Positions 20,223-25,939 of a stretch of 64,000 nucleotides of DNA are shown here, piece by piece; position 1 is the stretch's first letter; every line of letters begins with the position of its first letter. This DNA comes from a bacterium HR11 (GTDB taxonomy: Bacteria; Acidobacteriota; HRBIN11). The translations under genes were made by a program, and so were the position numbers. Below the pieces are notes generated by a model that was given only the letters and a program-made list of their open reading frames with translations, ran no database searches and was not told the DNA's origin. The stretch spans positions 62,001 to 126,000 of the forward strand of contig BEHN01000002.1 of NCBI GenBank assembly GCA_002898535.1. Direction: 5' to 3'.

Positions 20223-20810
20223 CTATGGGCGGTCCTGTTCGGCGTGCCGAAGGATGCGGGCGATGTCCGCGTACCCGGCCTCGGCCGCATAGGCGGCCGC
20301 CGTCAATCCGTCCGTGTCCGGCTGTCGGGGGTCGGCACCGGCTTCCAGGAGAAGGAGGACGACGGCCCCGCATCCTCGATTGGCCGCCCAGTGGAGGGCC
20401 GTCCACCGGTCCCGGTCGACGGCGTGAACGTCAGCGCCGGCCGCAAGCAGACGTCGCGCCGCCTCGGGTCGGCACCGGTCGGAAGCCCAGTGGAGGGCCG
20501 TCATGCCGGCCGGGTCCGGGGCGTTGGGGTCGGCCCCGGCCTCAAGCAGGACGTTCAAGACGCCCGGCTGGTTCATGACGACGGCGACGGCCAGGGCGTC
20601 CAGTCCATAGGGGTTCCGGACCGTCAGGGGCATCCCGGCCCACAGGAAGAGCCGGACGGCTTCGACATCGCCGCTTCCGACCTTGCCCAGAAAGGCCGCC
20701 GGCGTGAAGGGAATGCCCCGGCGGGCCAGCTCCGCCCGGGCCGCCGAGTCGCTCCGCGCACACCCCAGCGCCGCCAAAATCACGCCGGACCATAGAAAGC
20801 CCTTGTTCAT
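20223..20810 (-). CDS. Ankyrin-repeat lipoprotein
   Basis: 195 aa from ATG 20810. A short signal ending in the lipobox LAALGC indicates a lipid-anchored, exported protein. Four to five ankyrin repeats follow (for example GMTALHWASDRCRPEAARRL, then RWTALHWAANRGCG with GADP turns). The start overlaps the stop of the methylase upstream by ATGA, so it is the last gene of the modification cassette. An exported ankyrin protein in such an operon is unexpected; it may simply be cotranscribed. Its ligand is unknown. Confidence 0.8.
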   Translation of the reverse strand: MNKGFLWSGVILAALGCARSDSAARAELARRGIPFTPAAFLGKVGSGDVEAVRLFLWAGMPLTVRNPYGLDALAVAVVMNQPGVLNVLLEAGADPNAPDPAGMTALHWASDRCRPEAARRLLAAGADVHAVDRDRWTALHWAANRGCGAVVLLLLEAGADPRQPDTDGLTAAAYAAEAGYADIARILRHAEQDRP

Positions 20811-21673
20811 GCCTTCGAGCCTCTCGCTGGCTTCGTCCCCGCCTCCTGAAGACGACTCCATGTTTCCAAAAGTCCCACGAGCTGGGGGTTGTCCTCCCGA
20901 TTCAGCCGGCCCGCACCGTCGACCCGGATCCAAGAGACTTCTGCCAGCAGGACCTCATGGCCCTCCCTTGGAGACCGCTTTTCCAAATACAGAATGGCTG
21001 TCTTAGCCGTCGTCCCGACGGCTTTGAATGTCTCCCTCGGCAAGCCGATGACCGCCCGGATCATAAAGTTCTGGACAAGCCATTCCCGTACATGCTGAAG
21101 ACTGCGATTCGCGAAAATCCCCTCCGGCAAGATGATGCATACCCGGCCGCCAGGCTTGCAGAGCTGGATGAACCGTTCCAAAAACAGGACCTCAATGGCC
21201 TGAGAGGGCTTGGGACGCTCCAGATCGATCTCCAGCAGAGGCTGTTGTAGCAGGCGCTCCCGCCCGACCCGGACCTTCGAAAGTTGGAACCGTTTCAGGA
21301 CCCGGGGGTCCCGCACTCGAGCGCCCGTCGCCGCAAAGGGCGGGTTTCCGATGACCAGGTCATAATCGCCCCGCCAGAAGGCATTTTCGTCGCGGACGTC
21401 CTCTAAGCCGTCTTGACAGTACAGCCGGACCTTGGTCAGGTGGTCTCGGAGGAGACGCCGGGCCTGTTCCAGGGCCCCCGGGTCGATGTCGATGCCGGCT
21501 ACGGCTCCGGCCCCTCTCTCCAGGGCCTTCCACAGAAACACCCCTTCCCCGCAGGCCGGGTCCATGACCTTCCATAAGGGGTCGAACCCGACCAGGTCCA
21601 ACATGAACTCCGCCACGACAGGCGGTGTCCAGAATTGGCTCAAGGCTTTCTGCGTCGTACGCGTCGCCTTCAC
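20807..21673 (-). CDS. N6-adenine DNA methyltransferase (short, catalytic motif intact)
   Basis: 288 aa. SAM motif I is VMDPACGEGVFLWKAL (about 33-48), and catalytic motif IV is DLVIGNPPFAATG (about 105-117), the canonical NPPF of gamma-class N6-adenine methylases. EVLFLERFIQLCKPGG and a CIILPEGIFANRS segment are typical of HsdM/PglX-like enzymes. It lacks its own target-recognition domain. It overlaps the upstream long methylase gene by 4 bp (ATGA) and the ankyrin gene by 4 bp, so the three are translationally coupled. It probably depends on the HsdS-like protein for specificity. Confidence 0.88.
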   Translation of the reverse strand: MKATRTTQKALSQFWTPPVVAEFMLDLVGFDPLWKVMDPACGEGVFLWKALERGAGAVAGIDIDPGALEQARRLLRDHLTKVRLYCQDGLEDVRDENAFWRGDYDLVIGNPPFAATGARVRDPRVLKRFQLSKVRVGRERLLQQPLLEIDLERPKPSQAIEVLFLERFIQLCKPGGRVCIILPEGIFANRSLQHVREWLVQNFMIRAVIGLPRETFKAVGTTAKTAILYLEKRSPREGHEVLLAEVSWIRVDGAGRLNREDNPQLVGLLETWSRLQEAGTKPARGSKA

Positions 21674-23142
21674 CCCATGGATGCTCCTACCCGTTCGGCC
21701 AAGACCCGGAGTTGCTCCGCCATCTTCGGGCGCGTGACTTCAGCCAGCAAAGTCTTGAAATGGCGAGCTGGCTGACGTTTCTCGAGGACGACGGCGCACA
21801 TCTTGCTCGGCGTAAAGGGGAAAGCCCCTCGCGGCAGGCCCACGACGGCCCGAACGGTGATTTGGCTCAGGAGCCAATTCCGTAGGGGTCGGAGCTGAAC
21901 GTTCGTCCAGACGCCTTCAGGCAATACCAATCCGATCCGGCCGCCCTCTCGGGTCAGCCGAAGGGCCTGCTCCAGGAAGGCGACTTCGTATAAATTCTGA
22001 CGCCCCCCGCCACGTCCGGCCCATCGATAGCCCTCTCGTTCTAAACCTTCCCAATTCTCGGGTAGGTCTCCGGCCGGTGGATTGCTGAGCACTACGTCAA
22101 ACTTTTGAGGGCCTCGATCATTCCGGTGGATCCGCAAGCTGTCGCCTCCCGAAATATTCAACGGCCCCTGATAGCGGGGTAGGAGCAGTCCTATGAAGGT
22201 CTGGGCTATCTGGACACATATAGCATCTCTATCATACCCAAAGAGCTGACCGGCGATATCCACGGGGTCTGCCTCATGCCGTTCCATTAGATGAAGGGCC
22301 GCATAACACAGGAAACCGCCGGTCCCGCAGGCAAAGTCCAGGATCCGCTCGCCGGGCTTTGGATCAATGGCTTGGACCAGGAATTGGATGACCTCCGGCG
22401 GCGTGAAGTACCGACCGTACCGCCGGACCGGGTCCGTCTGGCCAGGGCTGAGAGGACGCATATATCGGCGCATGACCCAGCGAAACGCATGGGCTAAAGC
22501 CGGGTTGGCCGAGCCGCTACTTATGGTAGATTTCAGGAGGCCGACCGCCTTCTGAAAGACTCTGGAAGTCCGGTGGCGGAAGGAGCCATGCAAGGCATTC
22601 AGGAGAGCCCGACAGCGCTGATGGTCATTCCATGAAGGGGGTAGAGCTCGGAGGGCATCGAGAAGCGTCTGCCGATGACGGAGCTCGCCGGCACCCGAGT
22701 GACCCAGGGAGGCCCCTTGTCGTTTCAAATAATCACCGATCCGGGTCGCCAGTTGGTGTGGACGAAGGAGCCGGTCCGGGGGATCGTTCAAGGGAACATA
22801 ACGAACGCCGGCCCGACGGTCGGGCCTGACGGCCTGATAGCACCGGTCCTGCTCGCCAGCGGCGACCCAGATAAGGGGGATCAGGTCTTCCAGATTCCAG
22901 GCGACGGCCTTGAACCGGGCCTCGGCCAGGCCCGTGGGCTCATCGGTTGCATGACCTTCCACTTCGATCAGGACGACTGGAATGCTCCCGTCCCATAGGA
23001 CGGCGTCGGCCCAAAGCCGCTGGGTGCCGTAGAGGCGGATTTCGACCTCATAATCAAAGTCGGTGTGCTCCGTATACCCCAGACGCTCCAGGATGTGTCG
23101 GACCCGGGTCATGACCCGAGGTGATGGTTTAGTCCGCGGCAA
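21670..23142 (-). CDS. HsdM-like methylase with N-terminal HSDR_N-like domain and altered motif IV
   Basis: 490 aa. The N-terminal 120 residues resemble the type I restriction HSDR_N (PD-(D/E)xK-like) fold: ADAVLWDG followed by VLIEVEG. The usual ExK is ExE here, so nuclease activity is doubtful. The remainder is HsdM-like: YFTPPEVIQFLVQAI, motif I ILDFACGTGGFLCYAAL, and motif IV VVLSNPPAGDLPE. The aromatic residue that stacks on the flipped adenine (NPPF/Y) is replaced by Ala, confirmed by codons AAT CCA CCG GCC. Catalysis is therefore questionable and a structural or SAM-binding partner role is possible. It overlaps the HsdS-like gene by 14 bp. Confidence 0.85.
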   Translation of the reverse strand: MPRTKPSPRVMTRVRHILERLGYTEHTDFDYEVEIRLYGTQRLWADAVLWDGSIPVVLIEVEGHATDEPTGLAEARFKAVAWNLEDLIPLIWVAAGEQDRCYQAVRPDRRAGVRYVPLNDPPDRLLRPHQLATRIGDYLKRQGASLGHSGAGELRHRQTLLDALRALPPSWNDHQRCRALLNALHGSFRHRTSRVFQKAVGLLKSTISSGSANPALAHAFRWVMRRYMRPLSPGQTDPVRRYGRYFTPPEVIQFLVQAIDPKPGERILDFACGTGGFLCYAALHLMERHEADPVDIAGQLFGYDRDAICVQIAQTFIGLLLPRYQGPLNISGGDSLRIHRNDRGPQKFDVVLSNPPAGDLPENWEGLEREGYRWAGRGGGRQNLYEVAFLEQALRLTREGGRIGLVLPEGVWTNVQLRPLRNWLLSQITVRAVVGLPRGAFPFTPSKMCAVVLEKRQPARHFKTLLAEVTRPKMAEQLRVLAERVGASMG

Positions 23143-24292
23143 CCTTCACGCCTCGCAGGCTGTCGACTAAGCGGAGCACCCGCTGGGCTTCCTCCCGAAC
23201 CTCGGGGAGCCGTTCCGAAGGAATCCCAAGCAGGCGCATACCATTCTCTTCGGTCGGACGGACCGGACCGTTCGTCCGGGCAAGCCGACCGATGCGCTCA
23301 TACTCGTCTTCCAGAAACTTCTGCAAGGCCTCAGGAAGTCCGGTCGGGATGAGGGGCGTGATAGCCCTTCGCTGCCTTTCGATCAACTCTTCCACCTGGA
23401 GGATCAAAGTCTCCAGGAGGCCGAGAGCGATGGAAGTCCAACGGGCCGCCGTCGTCTCATCCCCTCGGTCTCGGGCGGCCACGGCCTGGCTGTGATAATG
23501 AGCCATCTGACGATAGGCCGCCGCGACGGCCGTCTGGACTTTATGCGCAGGGACGGGAATCCGGAGAGCCCGGATTTCGGCGAAATCGATTTTGACCTGC
23601 CCCGAGACGCCCGCCAGCCATCGTTCCAGTTGACCGGCCCCATAACGACTCTGGATAAAGACGACGACCCACTCCGGGGTCACGTTCTCCACGACAATCC
23701 GATCGATGTCTTGGCTGATGTTGGCCAGGCCGATGTCCGCAGGTACGACGGCGCATCGGCCTAAGGAGCCGACGCCGCTGTTGACGATCACGATGTCGCC
23801 GGCTTGCAAACGGCTCCGGGGAAGGTCGTTGTAACTCCCCTCGGCGATGAAGCGTCGCTGGGGCGGGGTCTCCCAGAGGTCCAGACCGGTCCGGCGCAGG
23901 TTCCGGACCTGGTAGTAGGCGACGCCCCGGACTTGAGACCCATTCGGAAGGCGAAGCCAGATCCCGTCCCTTTGGCGTTTTACCCGTGTCCCCTGTGGGG
24001 GGTACTCCCGACGGCCGACCTGGCCGTACGTGATGCCCGGGACCTCTTGGCCGAATCGCTCGACGGTCTCCGGGATGAAGCCACCCAATGGACGGACCGG
24101 AAAGGGACTCCGGTTTAAGGTCTCATAAAGGGGCTCCCATCGAGGGCTCCAGAAAGCCGGGTTGGCCCGCTCGACCAGACGGCGCTGTTCGACTAAGACC
24201 ATCATCGGGTCCTGGTCCTGAAGGACGGTGACAGGACCCTCAGGCAATCGGACGACTCGTTCCCGGATTTCGGGGTGAACCGGCACTGCCAT
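23129..24292 (-). CDS. HsdS-like specificity protein, single target-recognition domain
   Basis: 387 aa. The middle (about 165-265) shows the type I S-subunit TRD pattern: GDIVIVNSGVGSLGRCAVVP, then NISQDIDRI, VVVFIQSRYG and KIDFAEIRALRIPVP. A long amphipathic helix follows, as in the conserved spacers of HsdS. Only one TRD is visible, so a dimer or a half-site would be needed. The first 100 residues are not recognised. It is first in the cassette; downstream come two methylases and no HsdR translocase. Base composition is a little less GC-rich than neighbours, hinting at transfer. Confidence 0.8.
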   Translation of the reverse strand: MAVPVHPEIRERVVRLPEGPVTVLQDQDPMMVLVEQRRLVERANPAFWSPRWEPLYETLNRSPFPVRPLGGFIPETVERFGQEVPGITYGQVGRREYPPQGTRVKRQRDGIWLRLPNGSQVRGVAYYQVRNLRRTGLDLWETPPQRRFIAEGSYNDLPRSRLQAGDIVIVNSGVGSLGRCAVVPADIGLANISQDIDRIVVENVTPEWVVVFIQSRYGAGQLERWLAGVSGQVKIDFAEIRALRIPVPAHKVQTAVAAAYRQMAHYHSQAVAARDRGDETTAARWTSIALGLLETLILQVEELIERQRRAITPLIPTGLPEALQKFLEDEYERIGRLARTNGPVRPTEENGMRLLGIPSERLPEVREEAQRVLRLVDSLRGVKVAAD

Positions 24293-24340
24293 GGGGCACC
24301 TCGGGACCTCTTAGTGTTAGGTGTCGAGTGGTGAGAGTCA

Positions 24341-24602
24341 ACAGAACGTTCGGCTCGTGGGAATTCGGATGGACTCGACCTTTCCCATCCTCCGAGAAAG
24401 ACGATAGTTCAAGCATTCGGCAGATGGGCAGGTCGGCAGTCGGCAGATGGAGCCACGGGACGGGAAACGCCGTCCCCGAGGCCCAAAGTGCCCTCTGGAT
24501 CCCGTATCTCGCATCTCGTATCCCGTATCCTTGAACAAACGTGCTTTCCGAGCGATGGGAAAGGTTGGCCTGACGCCCTTCTCACGAACCGAACGGCTCT
24601 GC
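24341..24602. mobile_element. MITE-like intergenic unit: inverted ~72-bp arms flanking short tandem repeats
   Basis: The left arm (24341-24413) is the inverted counterpart of the right arm (24530-24602). Each runs from TTGAA...GGGAAAGGT to an outer end CGAACGGCTCT/AGAACGTTCGG. Between them lie 8-bp GGCAGATG units and 7-bp CGTATCC units. There is no ORF. The same arm occurs at 44092 (-), 48736 (+), 62768 (-) and 62933 (+), and truncated at 7333 and 60597. It fills the gap between purA and the HsdS-like gene. Confidence 0.7.
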
Positions 24603-24628
24603 CAAGGGATGCAGGAACGGCCCGGCGC

Positions 24629-25939
24629 TCACCTTCCCTCCACGGGTCGGAGGACTTCGTCGGGGGGGCGGAACCAGGCCGTCTCGTGACGCTGGGGGCC
24701 GCTGGACAGGAGGACGACGGGTCGACCCGTGTAGGTCTCGATCCGACGAATGTAGGCCCGGGCCGCCTCGGGCAGTTCGTCGGCGCGGGTCGCCCCGTAG
24801 GTCGAGGCGGACCAGCCGGGCCAGTCTTCGTAAACGGGCTGGACGCGCGCCAGCAGGTCGGCCCGGACGGGACAGCCCTCGACGGGCCGTCCGTCGAGGG
24901 TATAGCCGACGCACAGGCGGACCCGGGGCAGGCCGTCCAGGATGTCGAGCTTCGTCAGGATGATGCCGTCGACGTCGTTGAGGTCGCAGGCGTATTTCAG
25001 GGCGACCAGGTCGAGCCATCCGCACCGGCGGGGGCGGCCCGTCGTGGCGCCGTACTCGGCGCCTCGTTCTCGAATGTATTGGCCGACCTCGTCGTGAAGT
25101 TCCGTCGGAAAGGGGCCGGCGCCGACGCGGGTGCAGTACGCCTTGCTGACGCCGAACACCCGGTGGACCCATCGGGGGCTGATGCCGAGACCGATGCTGA
25201 TCCCGCCGGCACTGCAGTGCGACGACGTCACGAAGGGGTATGTCCCGTGATCGACGTCCAGGAGGGTCCCCTGAGCGCCCTCGAAGAGCACGCGGGCGCC
25301 CTGCCGGAGCCGGTCCCGGAGCCAGAGGTCCGTCTGGGTCACGCAGTCGGCCAGGTAGGTCTCGGCCCGCGCCAGGGCGGTCCGGAAGCGGTCCCACTCG
25401 GCCCGAAGCTCGGGCGGCACCGACGGTCCGAACATACGGACGTGTCGGTCCCACAGCCACTCGACGTGCGACCGCCAGGTCCCGTCGACGACCTGACCCA
25501 TCAGGAGGCCCCGGCGACCGTACTTGTCCTCGTAGGCCGGGCCGATGCCCCGACGGGTCGTCCCGATGGAATGGCACCCCCGCAGGGCCTCCTCCTGCGT
25601 CTCCAGCCACCGGTGGACCGGGGTGATGACGTGGGCCCGGTCGCTGATCCAGAGGCGCCCCCGCCAGGCCACGCCGGCGGTCTCCAGGTCGGCGATTTCC
25701 CGCAGGAGAGCCTCGACGTCGATGACCATCCCGTTGCCCATGACGTTCTGGACGTGGGGATGAAAGATGCCGGCCGGGACGTGGTGGACGACGAATTTCC
25801 GGCCGTCTCGATAGACCGTATGGCCGGCGTTGTGGCCCCCCTGGTAGCGGGCGACGATGTCGAAGTGCTCGGCCAGGAGGTCGACGACCTTGCCCTTGCC
25901 CTCATCACCCCACTGAAGTCCCACGACGGCGACGTTCAA
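24629..25939 (-). CDS. purA: Adenylosuccinate synthetase
   Basis: 436 aa. Converts IMP and aspartate to adenylosuccinate with GTP, the committed AMP step. The N-terminal P-loop region is VVGLQWGDEGKGK, followed by YQGGHNAGHTV and the catalytic/IMP-binding GNGMVIDVEAL, then SIGTTRRGIGPAYEDK, FEGAQGTLLD and TGRPRRCGWLD. It ends ..GRPVVLLSSGPQRHET. The start is TTG at 25939, directly before NVAVVGLQWGDEG, forming a TTGA overlap with the stop of the upstream cysteine-cluster gene. Confidence 0.96.
   Translation of the reverse strand: MNVAVVGLQWGDEGKGKVVDLLAEHFDIVARYQGGHNAGHTVYRDGRKFVVHHVPAGIFHPHVQNVMGNGMVIDVEALLREIADLETAGVAWRGRLWISDRAHVITPVHRWLETQEEALRGCHSIGTTRRGIGPAYEDKYGRRGLLMGQVVDGTWRSHVEWLWDRHVRMFGPSVPPELRAEWDRFRTALARAETYLADCVTQTDLWLRDRLRQGARVLFEGAQGTLLDVDHGTYPFVTSSHCSAGGISIGLGISPRWVHRVFGVSKAYCTRVGAGPFPTELHDEVGQYIRERGAEYGATTGRPRRCGWLDLVALKYACDLNDVDGIILTKLDILDGLPRVRLCVGYTLDGRPVEGCPVRADLLARVQPVYEDWPGWSASTYGATRADELPEAARAYIRRIETYTGRPVVLLSSGPQRHETAWFRPPDEVLRPVEGR

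What the first reader, a model, noticed from the sequence alone, without database searches (positions are those of the whole stretch)
20223..24292. HsdR-less modification cassette pairing a motif IV-mutant HsdM with a second, intact N6-methylase
Seen: four overlapping genes: a single-TRD HsdS-like protein; a 490-aa methylase with HSDR_N-like N-terminus (ExE instead of ExK) and motif IV NPPA; a 288-aa methylase with NPPF; and an ankyrin lipoprotein. No translocase or helicase is present. Established: the aromatic residue of NPPF/Y stacks with the flipped adenine, so Ala should cripple catalysis. Inference: the long protein may be a pseudo-enzyme scaffold for the short catalytic one, analogous in logic to METTL14-METTL3, forming a modification-only or novel defence system.
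Basis: partly seen in the sequence, partly recalled or inferred. Interest (0 to 1): 0.8.

Follow-up and report, generated by a model that had tools for sequence, protein, structure and literature searches.

The report
Paired DNA methylases, one apparently crippled
A rare Acidobacteriota lineage carries a three-gene DNA-marking cassette in which one methylase has kept its overall fold but altered a key catalytic residue, and sits beside a small intact methylase and a DNA-reading subunit; this may be a bacterial example of a 'silent partner' enzyme pair, but that is not yet tested at the bench.

Summary
On the minus strand lie S (one target-recognition domain, 387 aa), M1 (490 aa, motif IV NPPA), M2 (288 aa, NPPF) and an ankyrin lipoprotein. 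NPPA is not an assembly slip: a second species of the genus has the same operon with NPPA and the same ExE, M1 is under purifying selection (dN/dS 0.29; 0.13 around motif IV), and a DNA pattern for NPPAG occurs in only these 2 of 396 Acidobacteriota genomes and in no IMG/VR contig, against at least 120 for NPPFG. The genome has no other N6_Mtase above cut-off and no HSDR_N hit. The ankyrin gene is not part of it: a third congener keeps it intact at the same place after losing S, M1 and most of M2, and S/M1/M2 alone have foreign codon composition. M1 is built like the RM subunit of Type IIB enzymes (best fold match BsaXI), with both active sites altered. My best reading is a modification complex in which M2 methylates, S reads DNA and M1 is a degenerate RM-derived partner. 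A live nuclease in M1 is not excluded, since BamHI also uses ExE. New variant of a known kind.

The parts
23132..24292 (-). S: DNA specificity subunit, 387 aa, one TRD (profile match 115-274) plus helical conserved region
   Evidence: dN/dS 0.106, TRD 0.077; lower GC3 than flanks
21673..23142 (-). M1: RM-like subunit, 490 aa; PD-(D/E)XK-like domain (res. 8-118), helical connector (122-235), N6-MTase fold (240-475) with motif IV NPPA
   Evidence: conserved in G026; dN/dS 0.291
22072..22083 (-). M1 motif IV NPPA (codons AAT CCA CCG GCC), residues 354-357
22957..23007 (-). M1 nuclease-like motif D46...E60-V-E62 (ExE where ExK is usual)
20810..21673 (-). M2: compact N6-adenine MTase, 288 aa, intact motif IV NPPF, motif I DPACGEG, motif X FWTP
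   Evidence: dN/dS 0.101
20226..20810 (-). Ankyrin-repeat lipoprotein, 195 aa: adjacent, overlapping the M2 stop, but judged NOT part of the cassette
   Evidence: retained intact in G039 after loss of S/M1; native GC3

Best explanation
S, M1 and M2 form a horizontally acquired, HsdR-less DNA methylation cassette. S reads a short DNA half-site with its single TRD. M2 is the working N6-adenine methylase. M1 derives from a Type IIB-like RM subunit (nuclease-like domain, helical connector, methylase) and now serves mainly as the second protomer: it docks on S, holds DNA and binds SAM, and probably flips the base, but transfers methyl poorly or not at all because the motif IV aromatic is Ala. Shown: gene content, motifs, co-inheritance, purifying selection, foreign composition, loss as a unit, absence of hsdR. 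Inferred: complex formation, weak M1 catalysis, m6A product, modification-only role.
For: NPPA kept in two species (75% identity over M1) and absent from all ~110 other homologues examined, which carry NPPF/Y/W apart from two other odd variants, NPWF and NYPF. NPPAG DNA pattern only in G000 and G026 of 396 Acidobacteriota and 0 in IMG/VR versus at least 120 for NPPFG. M1 keeps SAM motif I, motif X and the motif VIII Phe. Selection: M2 0.10, S 0.11, M1 0.29, motif IV-VI region of M1 0.13: M1 is constrained, but less than its partners. S, M1, M2 overlap, share low GC3 (0.67-0.75 vs 0.84-0.87 in flanks) and were lost together in G039, leaving an M2 scar. Only two N6_Mtase genes above cut-off in the genome and no HSDR_N. 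Precedents: heteromeric M1M2S in PacII (PMC9613975), single-TRD S with separate M in Type 1 1/2 MTases (PMC3874165). From my own knowledge, not checked here: M.TaqI Y108A (same position) has strongly reduced catalysis but still flips the base.
Against: No evidence of physical association. dN/dS rests on one species pair. ExE does not prove a dead nuclease: BamHI uses E in that position (PMC4081073), and M1's nuclease-like domain is among its better conserved parts (83% identity, dN/dS 0.20). Ala at motif IV lowers but may not abolish methylation. M1 and M2 are not sister proteins in the tree, so the pair is not a simple duplication with one copy decayed.
Confidence: 0.48

Rival explanations
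1. A compact restriction-modification system: M1 is the restriction subunit with a live ExE nuclease (BamHI-like), its methylase domain kept as a DNA clamp or methylation sensor, while M2 supplies the protective methylation and S the specificity.
For: M1 has Type IIB RM architecture; best fold match is BsaXI RM; nuclease-like domain is well conserved, D46/E60/E62 identical in both species; BamHI has E for K; in G085 a related two-gene system has an ETK nuclease-MTase followed by a single-TRD S.
Against: Lys to Glu usually disables HSDR_N-type sites (own knowledge); part of the connector next to the nuclease-like domain evolves fast (residues 190-238, dN/dS 0.59); both M1 active sites depart from consensus, which fits loss of function better.
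Confidence: 0.27
2. PacII-like strand-asymmetric methylase: M1 still methylates (slowly, or another base) one strand and M2 the other, with S giving specificity.
For: M1 keeps NPP, motif I, motif X Tyr245 and motif VIII Phe441; heteromeric M1M2S enzymes exist (PMC9613975).
Against: In PacII the two subunits use NPPF and NPPY, both aromatic; NPPA is not seen in any other homologue examined; PacII pocket mutants including N276A/F279A impair methylation.
Confidence: 0.14
3. M1 is a decaying remnant with no role; M2 plus S is a Type 1 1/2 methylase.
For: M1 has a long stem branch and the weakest constraint in the cassette; the whole cassette is dispensable (lost in G039).
Against: Full-length open frame in two species, dN/dS 0.29, motif IV-VI region 0.13 and nuclease-like domain 0.20; gene overlap retained.
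Confidence: 0.09

Closest known systems
Type IIB restriction-modification enzymes (BcgI, BsaXI; RM2S)
   Same: M1 has the order nuclease-like domain, helical connector, N6-MTase; S is a separate adjacent gene; BsaXI RM is the best fold match (PMC11997821)
   Different: One RM-like and one trimmed M instead of two RM; S has one TRD not two; M1 has ExE and NPPA; chain of 490 aa against 916 in BsaXI, so little room for its knob and paddle
Non-canonical Type I M1M2S (PacII)
   Same: Two different N6-MTase-family subunits with an S subunit
   Different: PacII subunits are similar in size, with NPPF and NPPY; S has two TRDs; the systems belong to Type I R-M
Type 1 1/2 MTases (M.AhdI, M.BsaBI, M.PshAI; M.AhdI is 2M+2S)
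   Same: S with a single TRD encoded apart from M (PMC3874165)
   Different: Only one kind of M there; here a second, nuclease-domain-bearing M with NPPA
MADS (MAD2 methylase + MAD5 specificity subunit)
   Same: M2 and M1 hit MAD2 models weakly; a MADS-like locus (L103/L274) pairs an intact MAD2 with a degenerate MAD2 (motif IV NPWF) next to MAD5: same logic, arisen separately
   Different: Scores here are far below the MADS cut-offs (119 vs 720 bits), and no further MADS-like genes lie beside the cassette
METTL3-METTL14
   Same: Logic only: intact plus catalytically degenerate methylase
   Different: Eukaryotic RNA enzyme of another MTase class; no homology tested or implied

Membership tests
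Type I R-M system | HsdR translocase/nuclease subunit | tested here: not met
   None in cassette; no HSDR_N in genome, SWI2_SNF2 only below cut-off; genome about 95% complete
Type I R-M system | S with two TRDs | tested here: not met
   One TRD-like stretch only
Type IIB (RM2S) | RM chain with nuclease domain, helical connector, N6-MTase | tested here: met
   AF2 topology and BsaXI top fold hit; mean pLDDT 73, connector poorly modelled
Type IIB (RM2S) | Canonical nuclease site D...ExK | tested here: not met
   D46...E60-V-E62 in both species
Type IIB (RM2S) | Cleavage on both sides of the site | not testable with these tools
   Needs protein
Type 1 1/2 MTase | Separate M and single-TRD S | tested here: met
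   M2 + S
Type 1 1/2 MTase | 2M+2S with one kind of M | not testable with these tools
   Stoichiometry unknown; two different M genes present
PacII-type M1M2S | NPPF subunit plus NPPY subunit | tested here: not met
   NPPF plus NPPA
MADS | MAD2/MAD5 above family cut-off | tested here: not met
   119 and 36 bits vs cut-offs 720 and 400
Enzyme/pseudoenzyme methylase pair | Catalysis by one partner only, obligate complex | not testable with these tools
   Sequence only

The most novel reading that the evidence does not exclude
A bacterial DNA methylase built as an obligate enzyme/degenerate-enzyme pair on a half-sized specificity subunit, in which a former Type IIB RM subunit has lost methyl transfer (NPPA) yet still binds SAM and flips the target base, acting as a methylation-state sensor or allosteric scaffold for the small catalytic partner. 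The independent NPPF/NPWF MAD2 pair in a MADS-like locus would make this a recurring design.
Probability: 0.3. Interest if true: 0.72.

Novelty: new variant of a known kind. Interest (0 to 1): 0.5.

Why it matters
Degenerate partners of methylases are well known on RNA in eukaryotes, but I know of none described for bacterial N6 DNA methylases of this family. If M1 is a maintained non-catalytic partner, it gives a natural system for separating base flipping, site recognition and methyl transfer. It also shows how a Type IIB RM subunit can be turned into a modification-only factor. The related NPWF MAD2 partner would make the idea testable in a phage-defence system.

Tried and rejected
Ankyrin lipoprotein as a fourth component: rejected (kept intact in G039 without S/M1, native GC3). 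Recent tandem duplication giving M1 and M2: rejected, they are not sisters in the tree (M1 placement weak, long branches). Assembly error for NPPA: rejected by the congener. Hidden hsdR elsewhere in the genome: not found. Relatives of the M1 N-terminus or of S outside the genus: none in 396 Acidobacteriota genomes (N-terminus; weak partial matches only), GTDB contigs and IMG/VR (narrow peptide patterns, so weak negatives) or plasmids (S only). Structure prediction of S: useless (pLDDT 34), not used. Search for published 'NPPA' DNA methylases: nothing relevant.

Full report
WHAT IS THERE. The window is G000:C2:62001-126000 of an Acidobacteriota genome (phylum taken from the congener's record title) in a class with only 5 held genomes. 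On the minus strand, between purA and a two-component gene pair, are S (24292-23132), M1 (23142-21673), M2 (21673-20810) and an ankyrin lipoprotein (20810-20226), overlapping by a few bases each. M1 and M2 are N6_Mtase proteins. M1 motif IV is NPPA and M2's is NPPF. S matches type I specificity subunits over one TRD only.

IS NPPA REAL AND KEPT. A congener (G026, JAUQPV010000116.1) has the same operon with the same neighbours. Identities are M1 75%, M2 92%, S 84%, ankyrin 90%. NPPA, D46, E60 and E62 are identical in both. dN/dS between the two (Nei-Gojobori, my script) is M2 0.101, S 0.106, ankyrin 0.096 and M1 0.291, with M1's nuclease-like domain at 0.20, its MTase domain 0.25 and its motif IV-VI region 0.134. 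M1 is thus constrained, but less than its partners. Among about 110 other homologues from genomes, plasmids and IMG/VR none has NPPA; nearly all have NPPF, NPPY or NPPW, with NPWF in L103 and NYPF in L117 as the exceptions. A degenerate DNA pattern for NPPAG hits only G000 and G026 in 396 Acidobacteriota genomes and nothing in IMG/VR, while the NPPFG version reached the 120-stretch limit.

WHAT M1 IS. Pfam does not see its N-terminus. A profile comparison with HSDR_N_2 domains of related RM proteins aligns D46 with the Asp, E60 with the Glu and E62 with the Lys position (P = 9e-4; probability score only 23% because the M1 profile has two sequences). AlphaFold2 gives the a-b-b-b-a-b topology of PD-(D/E)XK folds followed by a helical connector and an MTase domain (mean pLDDT 73; connector below 50 in places). 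The best PDB fold match is the RM subunit of the Type IIB enzyme BsaXI (E 6.8e-18), whose published layout is REase, helical connector, MTase (PMC11997821). A relative in G085 shows the unaltered form: HSDR_N_2 (with ETK) plus MTase (NPPF) followed by a single-TRD S. M1 therefore looks like a Type IIB-type RM subunit with both active sites altered.

THE UNIT. S, M1 and M2 have GC3 0.67-0.75, against 0.84-0.87 for the flanks and the ankyrin gene. In a third congener, G039, the flanking kinase and purA lie about 1.3 kb apart; the ankyrin gene is intact there, S and M1 are gone, and pieces of M2 remain (79% identity over M2 residues 43-76). So S-M1-M2 has foreign composition, was lost as a unit there, is dispensable, and does not include the ankyrin gene. 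M1 and M2 are not sister sequences (M1's position is weak and on a long branch). No compact relative of M2 was found in 396 Acidobacteriota genomes outside the genus. The own genome has no other N6_Mtase above cut-off, no HSDR_N and no SWI2_SNF2 above cut-off.

HOW IT PROBABLY WORKS. In PacII M1M2S the target base sits in a cage of a motif X Phe, the NPP[F/Y] aromatic and a further Phe, and pocket mutants including N276A/F279A reduce methylation (PMC9613975). By alignment M1 keeps likely equivalents of the first and third residues (Y245, F441) and lacks the second. From my own knowledge, M.TaqI Y108A is catalytically poor but still flips its base. I therefore infer that M1 binds SAM and DNA but transfers methyl poorly, and that M2 makes the mark. 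Single-TRD S subunits with separate M are known (Type 1 1/2 MTases, PMC3874165). The main rival is that M1 is a working nuclease: BamHI has E where most have K (PMC4081073) and M1's nuclease-like domain is well conserved.

PARALLEL. A MADS-like locus (L103/L274) has two adjacent MAD2 proteins above the family cut-off (1020.7 and 794 bits against 720) next to MAD5; the second has motif IV NPWF. Intact and degenerate methylases side by side with an S subunit have thus arisen at least twice.

LIMITS. Two species carry the cassette; dN/dS rests on one pair; S could not be modelled; no complex prediction, methylome or assay was possible.

Noticed in passing
L103:2864-7071 (= L274:3902-8109): MADS-like locus with two tandem MAD2 methylases, the second with motif IV NPWF, motif I DCSSGTG and a degenerate HSDR_N_2 domain, followed by MAD5 and a 1388-aa protein that starts with a NERD-like nuclease-type sequence.
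   Followed up: partly
L143:4053-5101 (G039): Deletion scar: ankyrin lipoprotein intact, then about 455 bp with decayed M2 fragments, then purA; natural loss of the cassette.
   Followed up: yes
L048:2778-5819: Geoalkalibacter plasmid: a compact 316-aa N6 methylase (nearest tree neighbour of M2, long branches) close to an SspD-like gene and beside a type IV CRISPR (csf) cluster.
   Followed up: no
L054:5850-8501 (G085): Two-gene system: HSDR_N_2-MTase fusion (ETK, NPPF) plus a 269-aa single-TRD S; unaltered relative of the M1+S arrangement.
   Followed up: partly
L117:3227-4801: Type I-like methylase with motif IV NYPF instead of NPPF and an HSDR_N-like domain with IEAK.
   Followed up: no
window 24293-24631: Intergenic stretch between S and purA is about 290 bp longer than in G026 and holds short direct repeats (CGTATC and GTCGGCAG types).
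   Followed up: partly
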